DNA from: Heterostelium album PN500
Lineage: Eukaryota; Evosea; Eumycetozoa; Acytosteliales; Acytosteliaceae
Length of the DNA stretch: 64,000 bases
Direction: 5' to 3'
Assembly: GCF_000004825.1 (NCBI RefSeq)
Contig: NW_008805067.1
Span: 471,297 to 535,296, forward strand
This document shows positions 31,023 through 39,775 of the stretch, piece after piece (position 1 is the stretch's first letter; each line of letters opens with the position of its first letter). Below the pieces are notes generated by a model that worked only from the letters and a program-made list of their open reading frames with translations, searched no databases and was not told the DNA's origin. Both the position numbers and the translations under genes were made by a program.

Positions 31023-34000
31023 TTATCTTCTAGCTTTCTTGGTCAAATAAACGAAACCAAGAATAAAGAGGATAGACGATGCCCAGTAGGCAACCAAGAT
31101 TCCAAAGTTTCTCCATCTATTTTCATACTTCCAATCCAATGACTGATAGTATTCTTCACCATTTTTATAGACACAATATCCACATTCGGTTTGATTGGCA
31201 TTGAGTGATACTACGTAACCTGGTGAATTTTGAGTGAATCGTTCGGTGTATTGCTCACAGGTTTGTCCGCTTGGCGATGTGAATCTAATGAGATCGTCTG
31301 ATTTACAGATGACTTCGACTGGCTTGAGAATGGTAGTTACAATACCTTCCAATAGATATTTTGCAGGATTCAAATAGTACATAAAGCGGAAGAACGGTGG
31401 CAACAAAGCATAGGGAACTTGAACACCACAGAACAAGAAGATATAGAAAAGGAGAATGGGAAGACTTGCAATTGAGATGGCAATGTCAAAACACGCTGCA
31501 CCCAGAGCCTGACTGAATGATACAATGTAGAGTCCAAACATGGCGTGAATTAACCAGTAGTAGAATCCAGAGATTGCATCAAATTGGAGACCGGCAGTCC
31601 AGTAGGTACAGAAGAAGAACAGAGTGGTTGAGATGATGACATACGGCATTTCAACGGCAACGATTGCCAATGAGAAACTGTGCCATGAATAGTATTTACT
31701 AGCATAGTCACGCTTAAAGAAACTCTTTTGGATAAAGAATTGCGGTAATACCAAGTAGATGAGGAGCACACCTAGAACCATACCTTCCCACAAGAAGAAT
31801 ATTCTTTGATTCATATCGGATGACGAATCTTCCAACTTGAAGAATGTGAAACCCACAATCAAACCTGAGATAATCGATTGCGCGAATGAACCAATGGTGT
31901 ATTGTGGATCTCTCCACCACATCAGATTGAAACGTTTGTAGACTTCAATGAATTGAGTGAGGAAACTGGTAGCAAACTCTCTTGGAACTTCATTTTTAAC
32001 ATTGGATGAATTAATGTATTTCACCAACTCTTCGTCGGTTTTGAGAAGTGCGAGTTCAGCTTTGATTTGGCTGTACTCTGGTGAACTCTTCCAGATGGCA
32101 CTCCAGTCGTAGTCGGTCTTTCCATGGACACCGGCACCGATTACATCGAGAATATACTCAGCTGGATTCTCTGATGGATCAGACTCTCTTCCACCGTTTC
32201 TAACAAAGTAGTTGATCAAAGTCTGAGAGTTTTCACCGATATCACCGAAATAGACAGTCTTTCCACCTTTTGCCAAGAGGAGCAAACGGTCAAAGTGCTC
32301 AAAGAGAACTGGCGATGGTTGATGAATGGTGCAAACCAAAGGCATTCCAGCATCGGCAAGTTTACGAATGAATTTAACAATGTTGTAGGAAGATTGGGCG
32401 TCGAGACCAGAGGTTGGTTCGTCGAGGAAAAGAATATGGGGTTTCGCTACCAACTCCAATCCAATGGTTAAACGCTTACGCTCCTCTACAGAGATACCGA
32501 TACCAGTCTCCAAACTACCAACGAGTGCATCACCTAGATGTTTCATTTCCATCATCTCCAAGACACGCTCGACATATTCGAATTTCTCAGCGAGTGGAAT
32601 CTCTGGTTCCTGACGGAGTTTAGCAGAGAATCGAAGAGCTTCACGCACAGTAAGACCTGGATTATGTACATCCATTTGTTCTACATAACCAGTGATACGT
32701 TCGAAATCGATCTTCAAAGGTTTACCGTTGAGTGCAGACTCTCCTTGAACGATACCGATTGTTTTACGCTTTGCCAAGACGTCGAGTAAAGTTGTCTTAC
32801 CGGCACCAGAAGAACCCATTAATGCAGTCATTTGACCAGGCTTAATCCAACCAAGTACATCATCGAGTAACAGCTTTTGACCGATACCAGGAACTGGTAC
32901 AGAGTAGTTGATATTCTCCCAAGTAAAGATACCACCAGCAATCTTGAGATTCTCTTTCATGTTGGAAGTAGCTTGTTCGACAATCTTGTTTTGATTACGT
33001 TCTTCCTCAACATCGTTCAACTTTGGTGCTTTACCCTTCTTGTAGACTTTGTGAGTGTAACCACCTGATGTCCAATCAAAGAATTCAATAGCAAAGATAT
33101 TGAGTGCAATATAGAATAACCAGAGAAGATAGATGGCAATAACGTCAATAGCACGTTCACTTACTTTAAAGCTAAAGGTGTGCTTCAAGTAAGATTCACC
33201 AGCTACACTTATTTCACCTTCGACCGAACCAACGACAGGACAAATACGATGGAGACTGTCAGTGTAACCATCTCCATATGGAATTGCAGATTGAGCACAT
33301 GAGAATGACTGATCTTTGAATTCGTTGGTCATCAATGCTTTGAAAGCATATCCTAGTGGATTGACCCAGAAGAACCATTGGAACCAAGGGTGCATCTTAT
33401 CATATCTAAAAAAGGTTATTAAGTTAGAGTAAGGGAAGGTAATTAGTATATAGTATAAATTATTTAACTTGTGCATTTCAAAAATGATAAATTCCATTTT
33501 CAACGGAATAAAAGAAATATATAATAAAGAGGATATAATGAGATGGCAACATACGGAATAGTATAGCCGAAATAATTCACCATGAAGATGAAAACGAAAT
33601 TCATCACATTCTGACCAGCAAACAAAGTTGGAGTGAAATTACCGAATGCACGATACAACGAACCAGAGGCCAGAGTTACACCAACCAATGTGAATGCAAA
33701 TATAAAGAACTTTCCAGCATTATAATCCAGTCCGTACATGAAATAGGCGATGATTGCATGAAGGAATGACTGTGCGAATGCAAATGGAATGTCAACCAAA
33801 ACTTGAGATATCAAGAAAGCAGAAGGACGATACAGTGCATAGGACTTATGTTTCTGTAGGATACGTCTACCATTGAAAGTATTATGAAGATTACCACTTG
33901 TCAAGATACACATAAAGATAATCGACGAGAAAATAGCACCACCTCTTGTGAATAAACCGTTGGTTGTCTTGTCAAGCTGGAAATAGACACCACCCAAAAT

Positions 34001-35662
34001 AAAAGATTGGATAAAAACAGTGGAGAACAATGAAACAATGGTAAACTTATCACCATAACTCAATTGGAATTGACGTTTGGTAAGAGCAATCGATTGTGTA
34101 ATGAAGCTGGAGGTGTATGGTGAGCGCTTCGAAGAAGTCTTACTTCGCTCATTACGAATTTGTTCGATGAACTCTACCGATGGTTGTTCCTTCTCGACAG
34201 TTGCTTCATAGAGTTGCTGTGCCTCCATTTGCTCTCTGAACAAGGCAGATCTCTTCCATGCACTTTCGAGATCACCAGATGTCTCTGGGACACGACCTTC
34301 AAAACCTGGACGTACCAAACGCTCCTGAGGATTGGAGATACCAGTCAAAAAGTCGGCAACAGATTTTCTTGGTTCACAATCGAATCCAAGATCCAAGAAA
34401 TATTTCTTGGCAAGATGGATTGGACCGAAGTAGATACAACGACCCTTATCCAAAACCAATACCTTGTCAAACAAACCGTAGATGGAGTCAGATGCCTGAT
34501 AGAAAGAAGCAATGGTAGTCTTGTGAAGAGTATCGGACATGATTCTCAATGATTTAGCATAGTCCAAAGCTGATGCAGCATCCAAACCACGAGTAGATGA
34601 ATCCCAACATGTAATAGATGATCCAGACACCATTGCTTCAGTGATAGTCATTCTTTTACGTTCACCACCAGATAAACCTCTAACAAATTCATTTCCAACA
34701 ATCTTGTCAAAAAAAAAAAAAGAAATAAAATTAGTTTATTTGATTATACTATTATATATTTTATATTTTTACTTACAGTATTTCTTTGATTAACAAGACC
34801 ATACATAGAAACCAAGAGATCAAAGATCTTGGTACGGAAATTAGCTTTGGTTTCCTCTGGCAAACGTTGATGTGGAGTCTTTAACTTTAAGGTAAAGTCG
34901 AGAGTTTCGAAAACAGTGAGTGTTGGATAATGGATATCTTCCTCTGGTGTATAGATTGCCTCACCACGATATCTACCAAATTCATCGGATGGAATGTTTC
35001 CATACTTAACTTCACCAGTTACATCGATATAAGATTCAATTTGATTGGATACAACACGCAACAAGGTGGAACAACCAGATCCAGGACGACCCAAAACCAA
35101 CAACATCTTACCATCCTCAATATATCCATTAATATCATTTAAAATATTAAATGTATTGAGTTCTCTCTTTTTAAAACTATTTTAGTTTAAAAAAAAAGAA
35201 AAAATGAAACGAAGAAAAGAAAAAAAAACACAAAATGTTAAAATTAAATGTAAATATTATTAATAATTATACTTACTAATTTAAAGGATTTAAACAAGAT
35301 AATAAAAATTTAAAAGGTGTAAAATTGTCGGCAATAATAGAATGATCGGCACCCTGACCTACTACAGTCAAGTTCTTAATGGAGACACCCATCTTTTTAG
35401 GTTTTCCACCAATCTCCAGTTGAGTACGCATTGAATTTTCAAAATATTTTCGCAGTTTGAAATCATCTTCATTCTCTCGGACTCTTTCTCCCAATTCAAT
35501 ATCGACGTCACCTGGATCAGTATGTATATCTTGGAAACGCTGAGACTGACTAATAGCTTTTGCTTGGCTCTCCAAGTCCTTGGCAACCTCTTCGAATTGT
35601 CTATTTCCATCCTCGACAGATGGAGATTCGTTATTACTAACGCTTAAATGAGTTTCCGACAT
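31023..35662 (-). CDS. Full-length ABCG (PDR-type) transporter
   Basis: Four exons (35662-35277, 35176-34777, 34702-33555, 33405-31023) sum to 4317 nt, 1438 aa. The order is NBD1-TMD1-NBD2-TMD2, the reverse arrangement typical of pleiotropic drug resistance transporters. NBD1 has Walker [10 protein letters not shown] (residues 158-166), signature [11 protein letters not shown] and Walker B region [16 protein letters not shown]2 has [19 protein letters not shown], an atypical signature [12 protein letters not shown] and [15 protein letters not shown]. Each membrane half has about six spans (for example [20 protein letters not shown]), with a Cys-rich extracellular loop near the C-terminus ([22 protein letters not shown]). 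It likely exports lipids or small hydrophobic compounds from the plasma membrane; the substrate is unknown. Dictyostelids have many ABCG paralogues, so I give no gene number. Confidence 0.95.
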
Positions 35663-37454: not shown

Positions 37455-37494
37455 TTATTGTACATTAGATATTGGAGTCGCCAGATTGTAGGTC
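37412..37494. repeat. Short tandem duplication over the dioxygenase stop codon
   Basis: The stretch TTATTGTACATT...GGAGTTGCTAGATTG at about 37412-37438 is repeated at about 37455-37488 with six extra bases and a few substitutions. On the minus strand the inner copy encodes the end of the PhyH-type enzyme (NLATPISNVQ, stop). The outer copy lies just past the stop and would read NLATPMYNK. Confidence 0.65.
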
Positions 37495-38276
37495 TTAGCT
37501 CCTATCGAGTAGTCCTTTCCTTCTTCTCTGTCAGAAGCGGGTGGGAAAAGACGACGCTTCTCATCGTAGTAGAGATCACGCTTGTCACCGTCACATTCAG
37601 CGTTGTAGGTAAGGTATACGGCGTTTCTGGAGGAGTTGGTATTATTGGAGCCTGATCTGTGAGCAATGTAGGAGCCGAAAATTAAGACATCTCCGACTTG
37701 GCATTCGACTGGAGTCCATTGGTGTTGGTCACACCACTCGTCGGTGATGGAACCATCCGATTCTTTTTGTGGGAGGATAACGGCTGGATTGTGTGAACCT
37801 GGAACGACAAAGAGACATCCATTGGCAACTGTAGAGTCGTTGGCTGCCAACATGGCGGTGATATGGTGTGCTTGACCGAGTTGGACATAGGCTGGGGCGT
37901 CTTGGTGAGCTGGGAATCCACCACCACCTGCTTGTTTGTAGTTGATCTTCTCCTTGAACAACAATACTGGTTGTCCGATTAACTGAGCCAATGTTCCCAT
38001 AAGCTTCTCACCCTTGATGATCGAACGAATACCATCGTGGAATGGTGTGAAGTTCTCTGTACGACATAGTTGCTTCTCTTTGGTGACGAGGTTATCTTCA
38101 TAGTATTGCATCCACTTTCCTTTGGTTGGTGGTAATTCACTGATTTCCTTTACCCATGCAACCATATTGACCTTCTCTTCCTCGGTCAACAAGTCTTTCA
38201 ATACAAGGAATCCACTCTCATTGAATGATTTTCTTTGTTCCTCTGAAATTGTATATAAAAAAGTTTGTGGTTCCAT
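37455..38276 (-). CDS. PhyH-type Fe(II)/2-oxoglutarate dioxygenase, PhnY-like
   Basis: A single uninterrupted exon encodes 273 aa, the usual size of bacterial phytanoyl-CoA dioxygenase-family enzymes. The jelly-roll core carries the 2-His-1-carboxylate triad: H124 and D126 in FPAHQDAPAY, and H206 in IAHRSGSNN. R217 eleven residues later is suited to bind 2-oxoglutarate. NGCLFVVPGSHNP and VGDVLIFGSYIAHRS are the usual PhyH strands. It lies head-to-head, 833 bp away, with a PhnZ-type HD oxygenase. In bacteria PhnY is a PhyH-family enzyme that hydroxylates 2-aminoethylphosphonate at C1, and PhnZ then cleaves the product. The pairing is why I propose a phosphonate substrate; on its own this would be called only a PhyH-family dioxygenase. 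Lack of introns is compatible with bacterial origin. Alternatives are lipid or secondary-metabolite hydroxylation. Confidence 0.85.
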   Translation of the reverse strand: MEPQTFLYTISEEQRKSFNESGFLVLKDLLTEEEKVNMVAWVKEISELPPTKGKWMQYYEDNLVTKEKQLCRTENFTPFHDGIRSIIKGEKLMGTLAQLIGQPVLLFKEKINYKQAGGGGFPAHQDAPAYVQLGQAHHITAMLAANDSTVANGCLFVVPGSHNPAVILPQKESDGSITDEWCDQHQWTPVECQVGDVLIFGSYIAHRSGSNNTNSSRNAVYLTYNAECDGDKRDLYYDEKRRLFPPASDREEGKDYSIGAKTYNLATPISNVQ

Positions 38277-39109
38277 ATTTATTTGTTTATTAATGTTTAT
38301 ATGTATATAGTTTAGTAGTTTTAAATTAATGTTTAAGAGGAGGAGAATCTCAATATTTATATAATTTGATTATGAATGATTCTTTATTAAACATTGGGAT
38401 GAAATTCCAAAAGTGGTCAGTGGTGTCATTAATCACTCACACACAACTGATTCGGTAATTTCATTAAACCCAAATTTATAGGCACCAAAATTATTGTTCA
38501 CCATTAACTTTTTTAAATTGAAAAATAATATCTGCGATGTTGTTTGCAAGCAAATAAAAATTAAAATTAAATAAAATAAATTTCAAAAAATTTCATTTTA
38601 AAATATCTTGTATCTTTGGGTGTGTGGTATCAGAGCCCAGTGTGATTTGTTAAAGTGATGGGGGGTGTGGTTTGATTGTTTACTTTATATTTCGTTGCAA
38701 TCCGATGAATTTTAGGGTCAAAAGTTCCCGATAAAAACTCCGAGATAATAATATTTGCAACAATATTTGGTCAGAGCACATCCGAGATTTTCTTTTTTTT
38801 TTTGGGTTCTTTTATATTTGGTTTTCATAAGCTATTGAAATATGCTAAATTGTTTTATCAACACTCACTGAATTCGTCATAACTTTACTTATTTTTCTAT
38901 TTCAGTCAGTATTTACTTTTCATGTTGTCAACAAAACATCACTATTGTTAATATCATTCAAATATCAATTAGATTGTTCATCGATTAGTTAATACACACA
39001 AAGTACTTTGTTTTAAAATTTCATTAATCATAAATAAAAATAAAAAGAGATAAATTATTTAATTTAGTTTAGGTTCTTAATTAATCATAAATAAACAATT
39101 AATAAAGAA
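38277..39109. promoter_or_regulatory. Shared divergent promoter region with G-box-like motifs
   Basis: This region separates the start codons of the PhnY-like (minus) and PhnZ-like (plus) genes, so it must hold both promoters. Two GT-rich motifs, GGGTGTGTGG at 38618-38627 and GGGGGGTGTGG at 38660-38670, stand out in the A/T-rich background. They resemble the G-boxes bound by the Dictyostelium factor GBF. Whether they act here is inference. Confidence 0.45.
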
Positions 39110-39775
39110 ATGGATCCAAATTGTTGTGATGATATACATTGTGAGGAAAACAATGATAGTTTAACAAATGCAAAGTGTATTGTAGATGAAATTTGGAAGA
39201 TGTTGGAGAGTGGAATGGAAGAAGAATACATTGGAGAGGCAATCTCACAATTGGAACATGCATTGCAAGCAGCTGCCTCTGCTTCTGCCAATGGTTGTGA
39301 CGATGAGACCGTTCTAGCTGCGCTGCTGCACGATATCGGTCAGTTTGTAGTGGCATCGGATATGTCTCAGCAGATGTTGATGACCGACGAAGTCACCGGT
39401 GAAACAGTGTCGGTGGGTGCACACGGTCACGAGATCATCGGAGGTCAGTTCCTCCGAGCCAAAGGATTCTCTGATAAAGTAGCACAACTGGTGGAGGCAC
39501 ACGTCAATGTCAAGCGATACCTGACCGGTTCCAATCCCGACTATTATAACAGCTTGAGTGATGCATCAAAGGCATCGCTAAAGTTCCAAGGTGGTCCATT
39601 CACAGCAGAGCAAGTCAAGCAGTTCGAGGCATCCGATCATTTCGCGCTGAAAGTTCAACTACGTCGTTGGGATGACGCTGCTAAAGTAGTCGGTTTACAA
39701 ACACCAACATTAGAATTCTATAGACCAATTGCAATCAATCATTTATTAAATCAACAAAAATTAAAACAACAATAA
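39110..39775 (+). CDS. HD-domain mixed-valent diiron oxygenase, PhnZ-like
   Basis: One intronless exon encodes 221 aa. The helical HD fold carries YIGEAISQLEHALQAA (Y40, E43, H50), LLHDIG (H74, D75), GHEIIGGQFL (H107), VEAHVNVKRYL (H131) and LRRWDDAAKV (D188). As I recall the bacterial PhnZ structure, its six iron ligands are H34, H58, D59, H80, H104 and D161, with Y24 and E27 as a lid. The spacings Y-E 3, Y-H 10, H-H 24, H-H 24 and H-D 57 all match; only the stretch between the HD pair and the third histidine is about 11 residues longer. PhnZ uses O2 to cleave the C-P bond of 2-amino-1-hydroxyethylphosphonate, giving glycine and phosphate. The enzyme is cytosolic by appearance. The start ATG follows a typical A-rich leader. 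A related alternative is the TmpB enzyme for N-trimethylated substrate. Confidence 0.88.
   Translation: MDPNCCDDIHCEENNDSLTNAKCIVDEIWKMLESGMEEEYIGEAISQLEHALQAAASASANGCDDETVLAALLHDIGQFVVASDMSQQMLMTDEVTGETVSVGAHGHEIIGGQFLRAKGFSDKVAQLVEAHVNVKRYLTGSNPDYYNSLSDASKASLKFQGGPFTAEQVKQFEASDHFALKVQLRRWDDAAKVVGLQTPTLEFYRPIAINHLLNQQKLKQQ

What the first reader, a model, noticed from the sequence alone, without database searches (positions are those of the whole stretch)
37455..39775. Divergent PhnY-like/PhnZ-like gene pair: a eukaryotic oxidative phosphonate-degradation module
Two adjacent intronless genes face away from each other. The plus-strand HD protein has Y40, E43, H50, H74, D75, H107, H131 and D188. 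As I recall the bacterial PhnZ ligand set and lid, five of the spacings match exactly. The minus-strand PhyH protein has the HxD...H triad and a 2-oxoglutarate arginine. In bacteria such a pair turns 2-aminoethylphosphonate into glycine and phosphate. I know of no description of this pathway in social amoebae, which eat bacteria and could gain phosphate from phosphonolipids. Lack of introns in both, when most neighbours are spliced, hints at transfer from bacteria.
Basis: partly seen in the sequence, partly recalled or inferred. Interest (0 to 1): 0.85.

Follow-up and report, generated by a model that had tools for sequence, protein, structure and literature searches.

The report
Amoeba gene pair for phosphonate breakdown
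A social-amoeba genome carries two back-to-back genes that closely match the two bacterial enzymes which free phosphate from carbon-phosphorus compounds; their nearest relatives found are gene pairs in early-branching fungi, not bacteria, so this is a known kind of pathway in an unexpected host.

Summary
The minus-strand gene (37455-38276) is a PhyH-family oxygenase whose best curated match is the phosphonate hydroxylase PhnY (E 2.5e-65). The plus-strand gene (39110-39775) is a PhnZ-type HD oxygenase (PhnZ structure, E 1.8e-38; same predicted fold). All iron ligands and the Tyr/Glu lid are present. Relatives of the two are adjacent or fused in 60 of 80 bacterial loci, and probably share a contig in 13 of 17 other eukaryotes. 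Most likely they turn 2-aminoethylphosphonate or a close relative into glycine plus phosphate.

The pathway is not new to eukaryotes: fused PhoF is known in a fungus. Grouping the dictyostelids with the bacteria tested is rejected (AU p 7e-6); they group with early-diverging fungi (100/99). Direction between those two is unresolved (p 0.086).

A testable difference: PhnZ His62, which holds the substrate hydroxyl, is Gln78 here and in 95 of the 117 other relatives listed, while the amine-binding Glu is kept. Substrate is inferred, not shown.

The parts
37455..38276 (-). PhyH-family Fe(II)/2-oxoglutarate oxygenase, PhnY*-type phosphonate alpha-hydroxylase, 273 aa, no intron
39110..39775 (+). PhnZ-type HD-domain mixed-valent diiron oxygenase, 221 aa, no intron
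38277..39109 (.). 833 bp intergenic stretch between the two divergent start codons; possible shared promoter region (inference, not tested)
37899..37907 (-). H124-x-D126, first two iron ligands of the PhyH protein (HQD)
   Evidence: invariant in 15 of 15
37659..37661 (-). H206, third iron ligand of the PhyH protein
37626..37628 (-). R217, 2-oxoglutarate-binding arginine (role by family knowledge)
37470..37490 (-). C-terminal tail YNLATPI (tail class A), unlike the ISKIGHFxG tail of the methylphosphonate-type enzyme
39227..39238 (+). Y40-x-x-E43 lid (YxxE loop; PhnZ Tyr24/Glu27)
39257..39259 (+). H50, iron ligand (PhnZ His34)
39329..39334 (+). H74-D75, HD dyad (PhnZ His58, Asp59)
39341..39343 (+). 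Q78, in place of PhnZ His62, the residue that holds the substrate hydroxyl
39428..39430 (+). H107, iron ligand (PhnZ His80)
39500..39502 (+). H131, iron ligand (PhnZ His104)
39671..39673 (+). D188, iron ligand (PhnZ Asp161)

Best explanation
The two genes encode a complete two-step oxidative route that releases phosphate from a small phosphonate. Step 1 (inferred): the PhyH protein uses Fe(II), O2 and 2-oxoglutarate to hydroxylate the carbon next to phosphorus, most likely in 2-aminoethylphosphonate (AEP), giving (R)-1-hydroxy-2-aminoethylphosphonate. Step 2 (inferred): the HD protein binds this product at a mixed-valent Fe(II)/Fe(III) pair, its Tyr40/Glu43 lid opens as Glu43 takes the amine, O2 binds, and the C-P bond is cut to give glycine and phosphate. 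Likely sources are phosphonolipids or phosphonoglycans of prey bacteria, other amoebae or soil matter. Shown here: homology, complete catalytic residues, predicted fold, recurrent physical linkage of the two genes, and the phylogeny. Not shown: activity, substrate, expression.
For: HD protein: NCBIfam Phn-HD 3e-52, PDB PhnZ 1.8e-38, TmpB 5.9e-28. Its AlphaFold model (pLDDT 89.3) matches PhnZ 4n6w at TM 0.77/0.94 (by query/target length), rmsd 1.2; other PhnZ chains give rmsd 2.4-4.9; the 10 chains below E 0.001 are all PhnZ or TmpB. In 204 aligned HD rows the six ligands are kept in 200-204 rows each and the lid Tyr and Glu in 196 and 197 (4-6 rows have gaps at some of these). PhyH protein: best curated family is phosphonate hydroxylase PhnY at 2.5e-65, next is ectoine hydroxylase at 1.4e-11; confident model (pLDDT 91.5). 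Linkage: of 80 bacterial loci found with the PhyH alignment alone, 44 have an HD relative beside it on the same strand, 3 on the opposite strand, 13 have it fused, and 20 have none in the held flank. Of 17 species named in both protein lists, 13 have both proteins on a contig of the same listed length. AEP side: the amine-binding Glu is kept; HD trees rooted on TmpB put the dictyostelid, fungal and PhnZ rows together, away from the methylphosphonate-type rows (99; 99/97); the PhyH tail is class A, not the methylphosphonate class B. TmpA is a TauD-type enzyme, not PhyH. PhnX, PhnW and PhnA are not detected in this genome at curated cut-offs.
Against: Neither protein reaches the curated cut-off of its best family model: 176.7 against 214.6 bits for Phn-HD, 220.6 against 500 bits for PhnY. 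PhnZ His62, which contacts the substrate hydroxyl and where changes to substrate or residues are reported to lower activity, is Gln78 here. The PhnY model that matched is the methylphosphonate type; no AEP-type PhnY model was among the hits, so the hydroxylase substrate is not directly indicated. The PhyH tree leaves the place of the methylphosphonate-type group relative to the others unresolved (open fork), and searches used that group as outgroup, so the split towards AEP rests on the HD trees alone, which carry long-branch warnings. No characterised AEP-type PhnY sequence was available. No expression or activity data.
Confidence: 0.7

Rival explanations
1. Same two-step chemistry but on methylphosphonate (to formate and phosphate), as in Gimesia.
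For: The best NCBIfam match of the PhyH protein is the methylphosphonate hydroxylase model; Gimesia PhnZ also accepts the AEP-derived intermediate (review).
Against: Score is 220.6 bits against a cut-off of 500, whereas the one over-cut-off protein found among 199 genomes of the phylum of L043 scores 559.3. HD trees rooted on TmpB set the methylphosphonate-type rows L043 and L096 apart from the dictyostelid, fungal and PhnZ rows; the PhyH tree sets them in a group of their own but does not resolve its place. The C-terminal tail class differs.
Confidence: 0.08
2. An oxidative phosphonate pair with its own, still unknown aminoalkylphosphonate or hydroxy-phosphonate substrate, set by the His62-to-Gln change found in the dictyostelid proteins and most of their listed relatives.
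For: Gln at this position in 3 of 3 dictyostelid rows and 95 of the 117 other rows of the list, but His in PhnZ, TmpB, 11 of 11 fused rows and 65 of 66 distinct locus rows, the last one being a gap; His62 contacts the substrate hydroxyl. PhoF shows that a fungal enzyme can have a wider range (AEP and 3-aminopropylphosphonate).
Against: The amine-binding Glu, the lid Tyr and all ligands are unchanged; Gln can also donate a hydrogen bond; of the 117 rows 14 have His and 6 Arg.
Confidence: 0.2
3. The two enzymes serve turnover of phosphonates made by the amoeba itself (lipids or glycans), not feeding. This concerns purpose and does not exclude the main reading.
For: Another soil amoeba, Acanthamoeba castellanii, contains the hydroxylated AEP (PMC8154272, passages).
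Against: No PEP mutase at the curated cut-off in this genome: the one hit has 80.1 bits against 319.55, and its sequence reads to me like methylisocitrate lyase.
Confidence: 0.06
4. Two unrelated neighbouring enzymes, for example a lipid PhyH hydroxylase beside an inositol-oxygenase-like HD protein.
For: PhyH and HD are large families; weak Pfam MIOX match (23.9 bits, below its cut-off of 25).
Against: Recurrent linkage and fusion and family placement.
Confidence: 0.02

Closest known systems
PhnY*/PhnZ of uncultured bacterium HF130_AEPn_1 (AEP to glycine and phosphate)
   Same: Same two enzyme families by annotation; all PhnZ iron ligands, YxxE lid and six of seven spacings; same fold.
   Different: Eukaryotic, divergent genes 833 bp apart; 11 more residues between H74-D75 and H107; Gln78 in place of His62; PhnY* itself could not be compared (sequence not held).
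PhoF, fused PhnY-PhnZ of the fungus Fonsecaea multimorphosa (AEP and 3-aminopropylphosphonate)
   Same: A eukaryotic enzyme of the same two parts, in fungi, the kingdom in which the closest relatives of the window pair lie.
   Different: PhoF is one fused protein; here two separate genes.
Methylphosphonate pair PhnY/PhnZ1 of Gimesia maris type (NF052437, NF052439; L096 over the PhnY cut-off, L043 best-scoring but under it)
   Same: PhyH plus HD pair; best curated model for the hydroxylase.
   Different: Set apart from the dictyostelid, fungal and PhnZ rows in HD trees; different C-terminal tail; His62 kept.
TmpA/TmpB of Leisingera type (trimethyl-AEP to glycine betaine)
   Same: HD partner is homologous (6npa, E 5.9e-28).
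   Different: TmpA is a TauD/gamma-butyrobetaine-type enzyme, not PhyH; the window HD protein scores 129.3 of 300 bits with TmpB.
Unfused pairs of early-diverging fungi (Basidiobolus, Mucoromycota, Mortierellomycota and others), mostly named hypothetical in the lists
   Same: About 45-63% identity for the HD and 48-60% for the PhyH protein; gene tags one apart in Apophysomyces, Umbelopsis nana and Podila verticillata; Gln common.
   Different: Different kingdom; orientation of the two genes in fungi not testable here.

Membership tests
PhnZ / mixed-valent HD phosphonate oxygenase | HD ligand set H..HD..H..H..D | tested here: met
   H50, H74, D75, H107, H131, D188
PhnZ / mixed-valent HD phosphonate oxygenase | YxxE lid, absent from MIOX | tested here: met
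   Y40, E43
PhnZ / mixed-valent HD phosphonate oxygenase | His62 holding the substrate hydroxyl (described for PhnZ; not stated to define the family) | tested here: not met
   Gln78 at this place
PhnZ / mixed-valent HD phosphonate oxygenase | PhnZ fold | tested here: met
   TM 0.77/0.94 (query/target length), rmsd 1.2 to 4n6w; (predicted model)
PhnZ / mixed-valent HD phosphonate oxygenase | Curated cut-off of NCBIfam TIGR03276 | tested here: not met
   176.7 of 214.6 bits. In one search the fungal P0005, the fused P0195, the Legionella, L043 and TmpB-type HD proteins also miss it, and one plasmid protein (L088) passes, so the cut-off is narrower than the family
PhnZ / mixed-valent HD phosphonate oxygenase | Activity on (R)-1-hydroxy-2-aminoethylphosphonate; mixed-valent diiron site | not testable with these tools
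   needs protein
PhnY*-type PhyH hydroxylase | HxD...H iron triad and 2-oxoglutarate arginine | tested here: met
   H124, D126, H206, R217
PhnY*-type PhyH hydroxylase | Closer to PhnY than to other PhyH families | tested here: met
   2.5e-65 (methylphosphonate PhnY model) against 1.4e-11 for ectoine hydroxylase
PhnY*-type PhyH hydroxylase | Gene beside or fused to a PhnZ-type HD gene | tested here: met
   window; 60 of 80 bacterial loci
PhnY*-type PhyH hydroxylase | Similarity to the AEP-type PhnY* of HF130 itself; activity on AEP | not testable with these tools
   sequence not held; needs protein
Methylphosphonate hydroxylase (NF052437) | Curated cut-off 500 bits | tested here: not met
   220.6 bits
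TmpA/TmpB | TauD-type TmpA partner and TmpB cut-off 300 bits | tested here: not met
   partner is PhyH; TmpB score 129.3
Myo-inositol oxygenase (MIOX) | MIOX fold and Pfam PF05153 cut-off | tested here: not met
   23.9 of 25 bits; TM 0.47/0.41 to 2huo
PhoF | Single fused polypeptide | tested here: not met
   two genes on opposite strands

The most novel reading that the evidence does not exclude
The dictyostelid and fungal pairs form a distinct eukaryotic branch of oxidative phosphonate enzymes, marked by Gln in place of the substrate-pocket His62. The branch has its own substrate range and passed as a linked two-gene cluster between early-diverging fungi and one branch of social amoebae.
Probability: 0.3. 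Interest if true: 0.7.

Novelty: new member of a known kind. Interest (0 to 1): 0.5.

Why it matters
If true, a bacterivorous amoeba can take phosphate (and glycine) directly from C-P compounds of its food. That extends a pathway studied mainly in bacteria, plus one fused fungal enzyme, to another eukaryotic lineage. It also provides an unfused eukaryotic pair and a natural variant (His62 to Gln) of the PhnZ pocket, and a case of a linked metabolic gene pair shared between fungi and amoebae.

Tried and rejected
Direct transfer from bacteria: rejected by AU tests on the concatenated pair. Dictyostelids with 11 bacterial rows p 7e-6, with 4 Legionella rows p 2.3e-6, with 7 fused rows (protist or unnamed) p 9.8e-5; these groups were chosen after seeing the first tree. 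Fungal monophyly without the dictyostelids was not rejected: p 0.086 concatenated (13 fungi), 0.29 PhyH (17 fungi), 0.32 HD (19 fungi). So a fungal-to-amoeba transfer is favoured by topology only, and vertical descent with losses or the reverse direction remain open. The nearest fungal neighbour, Basidiobolus, is supported (88; 88/86) but left open.

Compositional trace of foreign origin: GC3 of the pair (0.464, 0.392) lies within the 0.208-0.490 range of 13 other ORFs of the window (13 of the 21 others listed). This gave nothing.

Endogenous phosphonate synthesis and other routes: the PEP mutase model found one 80.1-bit hit, which I read as methylisocitrate lyase. PhnW best 98.1 of 400.8 bits, PhnA 32.3 of 407.55, PhnX no match at E 0.001. 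C-P lyase and PalA/PalB were not searched. A translation of the PhnA-like locus in a single frame was uninformative and not pursued.

C-terminal tail patterns: a first and a second pattern were too strict. The counts quoted come from patterns loosened after reading the tails, so they describe and do not test.

The search with a fused protein was meant to reach PhoF; none of the 120 rows shown (of 754) is named as such. PhnY* of HF130 was not obtained. The structure model of the PhyH protein finds general PhyH relatives among the 50 hits shown, so it does not speak to substrate.

Full report
WHAT IS THERE. The window lies in a 32.9 Mb genome of 39 contigs. Neighbouring genes (ComC-domain proteins, TAF10, MetRS, an ABC transporter) and the nearest named protein hits (Acytostelium subglobosum, 75 and 78% identity) mark it as a dictyostelid. 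Size and contig count fit Heterostelium (Polysphondylium) pallidum, but that is recalled and comes from no call. Two intronless genes stand back to back: PhyH protein 37455-38276 (-), 273 aa, and HD protein 39110-39775 (+), 221 aa, 833 bp apart. One copy of each was found in the genome. GC3 of the pair is ordinary for the window.

WHAT THE PROTEINS ARE. The HD protein matches NCBIfam Phn-HD at 3e-52, then hydroxymethylphosphonate dioxygenase PhnZ1 (1.5e-39) and TmpB (1.4e-37). In the PDB it matches PhnZ (1.8e-38) and TmpB (5.9e-28), and nothing else below E 0.2. Its AlphaFold model (mean pLDDT 89.3) matches PhnZ 4n6w at TM 0.77 by query and 0.94 by target length, rmsd 1.2; other PhnZ chains give rmsd 2.4-4.9; MIOX 2huo is far behind at 0.47 and 0.41. 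The PhyH protein matches the PhnY-type methylphosphonate hydroxylase model at 2.5e-65; the next family, ectoine hydroxylase, is at 1.4e-11. Its model (pLDDT 91.5) has the general PhyH fold. No PhnY structure appears among the 17 sequence hits or the 50 fold hits shown. Neither protein reaches the curated cut-off of its best model. The fungal, dictyostelid and protist relatives scanned also miss these cut-offs.

CATALYTIC RESIDUES. A review (PMC7916636, passages read) gives the PhnZ ligands as His34, His58, Asp59, His80, His104 and Asp161, with Tyr24 as an alternative ligand, Glu27 on the substrate amine and His62 on the substrate hydroxyl. A second review (PMC8177086, passages) describes the Tyr24/Glu27 lid and its absence from MIOX. 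The printed alignment maps these to H50, H74, D75, H107, H131, D188, Y40, E43 and Q78. Among 204 aligned HD rows (206 rows less two further copies of the window gene) each ligand is kept in 200-204 rows, the lid Tyr in 196 and the lid Glu in 197. Position 78 is different. It is Gln in 3 of 3 dictyostelid rows; in the other 117 rows of the list it is Gln in 95, His in 14, Arg in 6, Leu in 1 and a gap in 1. It is His in PhnZ, TmpB and 11 of 11 fused rows, and in 65 of 66 distinct locus rows after removing duplicates and the window's own gene; the exception is a gap in L095, a weakly related HD protein. Those 66 include the TmpB-type and methylphosphonate-type rows. The 117 rows hold fungi, one alga-like protist and many unnamed metagenome proteins, so the Gln is common in this branch but not universal. 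One contact residue to the substrate is thus changed while the amine contact is kept.

LINKAGE. An HD relative lies beside the PhyH gene on the same strand in 44, on the opposite strand in 3, fused in 13, and is absent from the held flank in 20 (some flanks are cut by contig ends). Among eukaryotes, 17 species are named in both protein lists (counted by hand from 120 rows each). In 13 of them both proteins carry the same longest-contig length, which I take to mean one contig; the four others are Basidiobolus ranarum, two Coemansia, and Phycomyces blakesleeanus (different assemblies). Gene tags are one apart in Apophysomyces, Umbelopsis nana and Podila verticillata, ten apart in Acytostelium (consecutive if numbered by tens, which I assume) and two apart in Calcarisporiella. 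Orientation in those genomes could not be read. Fused HD-PhyH proteins occur in bacteria and in protists, among them Acrasis kona.

WHERE THE PAIR COMES FROM. In the concatenated tree (37 rows) the three dictyostelid pairs sit in one group with 13 early-diverging fungi at 100/99, nearest to Basidiobolus at 88/86. The third dictyostelid is an unnamed EukProt entry, called dictyostelid only because of its identity and place in the tree. Single-gene trees agree in placing the dictyostelids among fungi: PhyH, 25 rows at 95 and 20 rows at 97/97; HD, 17 rows at 90 and 11 rows at 85/84. In the HD tree, however, bacteria and fused rows also nest among fungi, and both HD trees carry long-branch warnings; the Basidiobolus neighbourhood is left open. 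Holding the dictyostelids with the 11 bacterial rows, with Legionella, or with the fused rows is rejected (p 7e-6, 2.3e-6, 9.8e-5, groups chosen after the first tree). Fungi alone as one group is not rejected (p 0.086, 0.29, 0.32). So nothing here supports a move straight from bacteria into this amoeba; whether the pair moved from fungi to amoebae, the other way, or descended with many losses is open. None of the named rows is a Dictyostelium, but only 120 of 2667 and 120 of 843 matches were shown.

LIKELY SUBSTRATE. Four known versions of the pathway are listed in a review (PMC10574752, passages): PhnY*/PhnZ on AEP, the Gimesia pair on methylphosphonate, TmpA/TmpB on trimethyl-AEP, and the fused fungal PhoF on AEP and 3-aminopropylphosphonate. 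TmpA is a TauD-type enzyme, so that version does not fit. HD trees rooted on TmpB put the window protein on the PhnZ side of a split from the methylphosphonate-type rows (99; 99/97). The PhyH tree gives the methylphosphonate-type rows a group of their own but does not resolve where it attaches, and that group was set as the outgroup. The PhyH tail is of class A (YNLATPI-like): 114 of 120 rows of the list and 38 of 80 bacterial loci. Class B (ISKIGHFxG-like) has 28 of 80, including L043, and is also the tail of the over-cut-off reference L096. Class C has 13 of 80, none with an HD neighbour; one locus is cut (patterns set after looking). AEP or a close aminoalkylphosphonate is therefore the best guess. 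The Gln78 change and the unresolved PhyH tree keep this from being firm.

BIOLOGICAL SENSE. The hydroxylated AEP was first isolated from the soil amoeba Acanthamoeba castellanii, and hydroxy-AEP lipids are reported in Bdellovibrio stolpii; 7 phnY*Z clusters were counted in 19,425 complete bacterial genomes (PMC8154272, passages). Prey, other amoebae or soil matter could thus supply the substrate. This genome shows no PEP mutase, PhnX, PhnW or PhnA at curated cut-offs (six-frame search, spliced genes can be missed). C-P lyase and PalA/PalB were not searched.

NOVELTY. PhoF shows that the chemistry is already known in a eukaryote (the PhoF paper itself was not held). No paper on this pair in dictyostelids was seen in the listings. 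These cover only openly licensed full texts, I saw titles and starts of abstracts, and some listings were cut (20 of 58 papers, 15 of 25, 10 of 38). In one search the terms phosphonate and Acytostelium met in 0 papers. I rate it a new member of a known kind, with a variant pocket residue and an unexpected fungal-amoebal kinship.

Noticed in passing
L007-L009, L011-L015 (for example L007:3995-5466): Several Legionella species, bacteria known to live with amoebae (recalled), carry an adjacent PhyH-HD pair at about 45% identity to the window PhyH protein; they hold most of the top bacterial matches but do not group with the dictyostelid pair.
   Followed up: partly
P0324 (Acrasis kona AKO1_013613), P0321, P0319, P0328: Another, unrelated amoeba, Acrasis (sorocarp-forming, recalled), has a fused HD-PhyH protein, with the class B tail seen in the methylphosphonate-type enzyme: possibly an independent gain of the pathway. 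It was not placed in the trees.
   Followed up: partly
L048, L049, L052, L054, L060, L065, L070, L071, L073, L075, L078, L081, L084; also L098, L099: A PhyH group with a Y-x-F/Y-R/K-V C-terminus; none of the 13 members among the 80 loci has an HD neighbour. In the genome of L073 a PhnZ-family HD gene lies elsewhere (L091), in that of L065 none was found: perhaps a hydroxylase working without PhnZ or with a distant one.
   Followed up: partly
L088 (Hymenobacter plasmid): Phosphonate HD oxygenase over the family cut-off, with no PhyH gene annotated in the stretch shown, next to an MFS transporter, SusC/SusD and a Na/Pi symporter.
   Followed up: no
window 31023-34651 (-): PDR-type ABC transporter split over two ORFs by what looks like a short intron near 33500.
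   Followed up: partly
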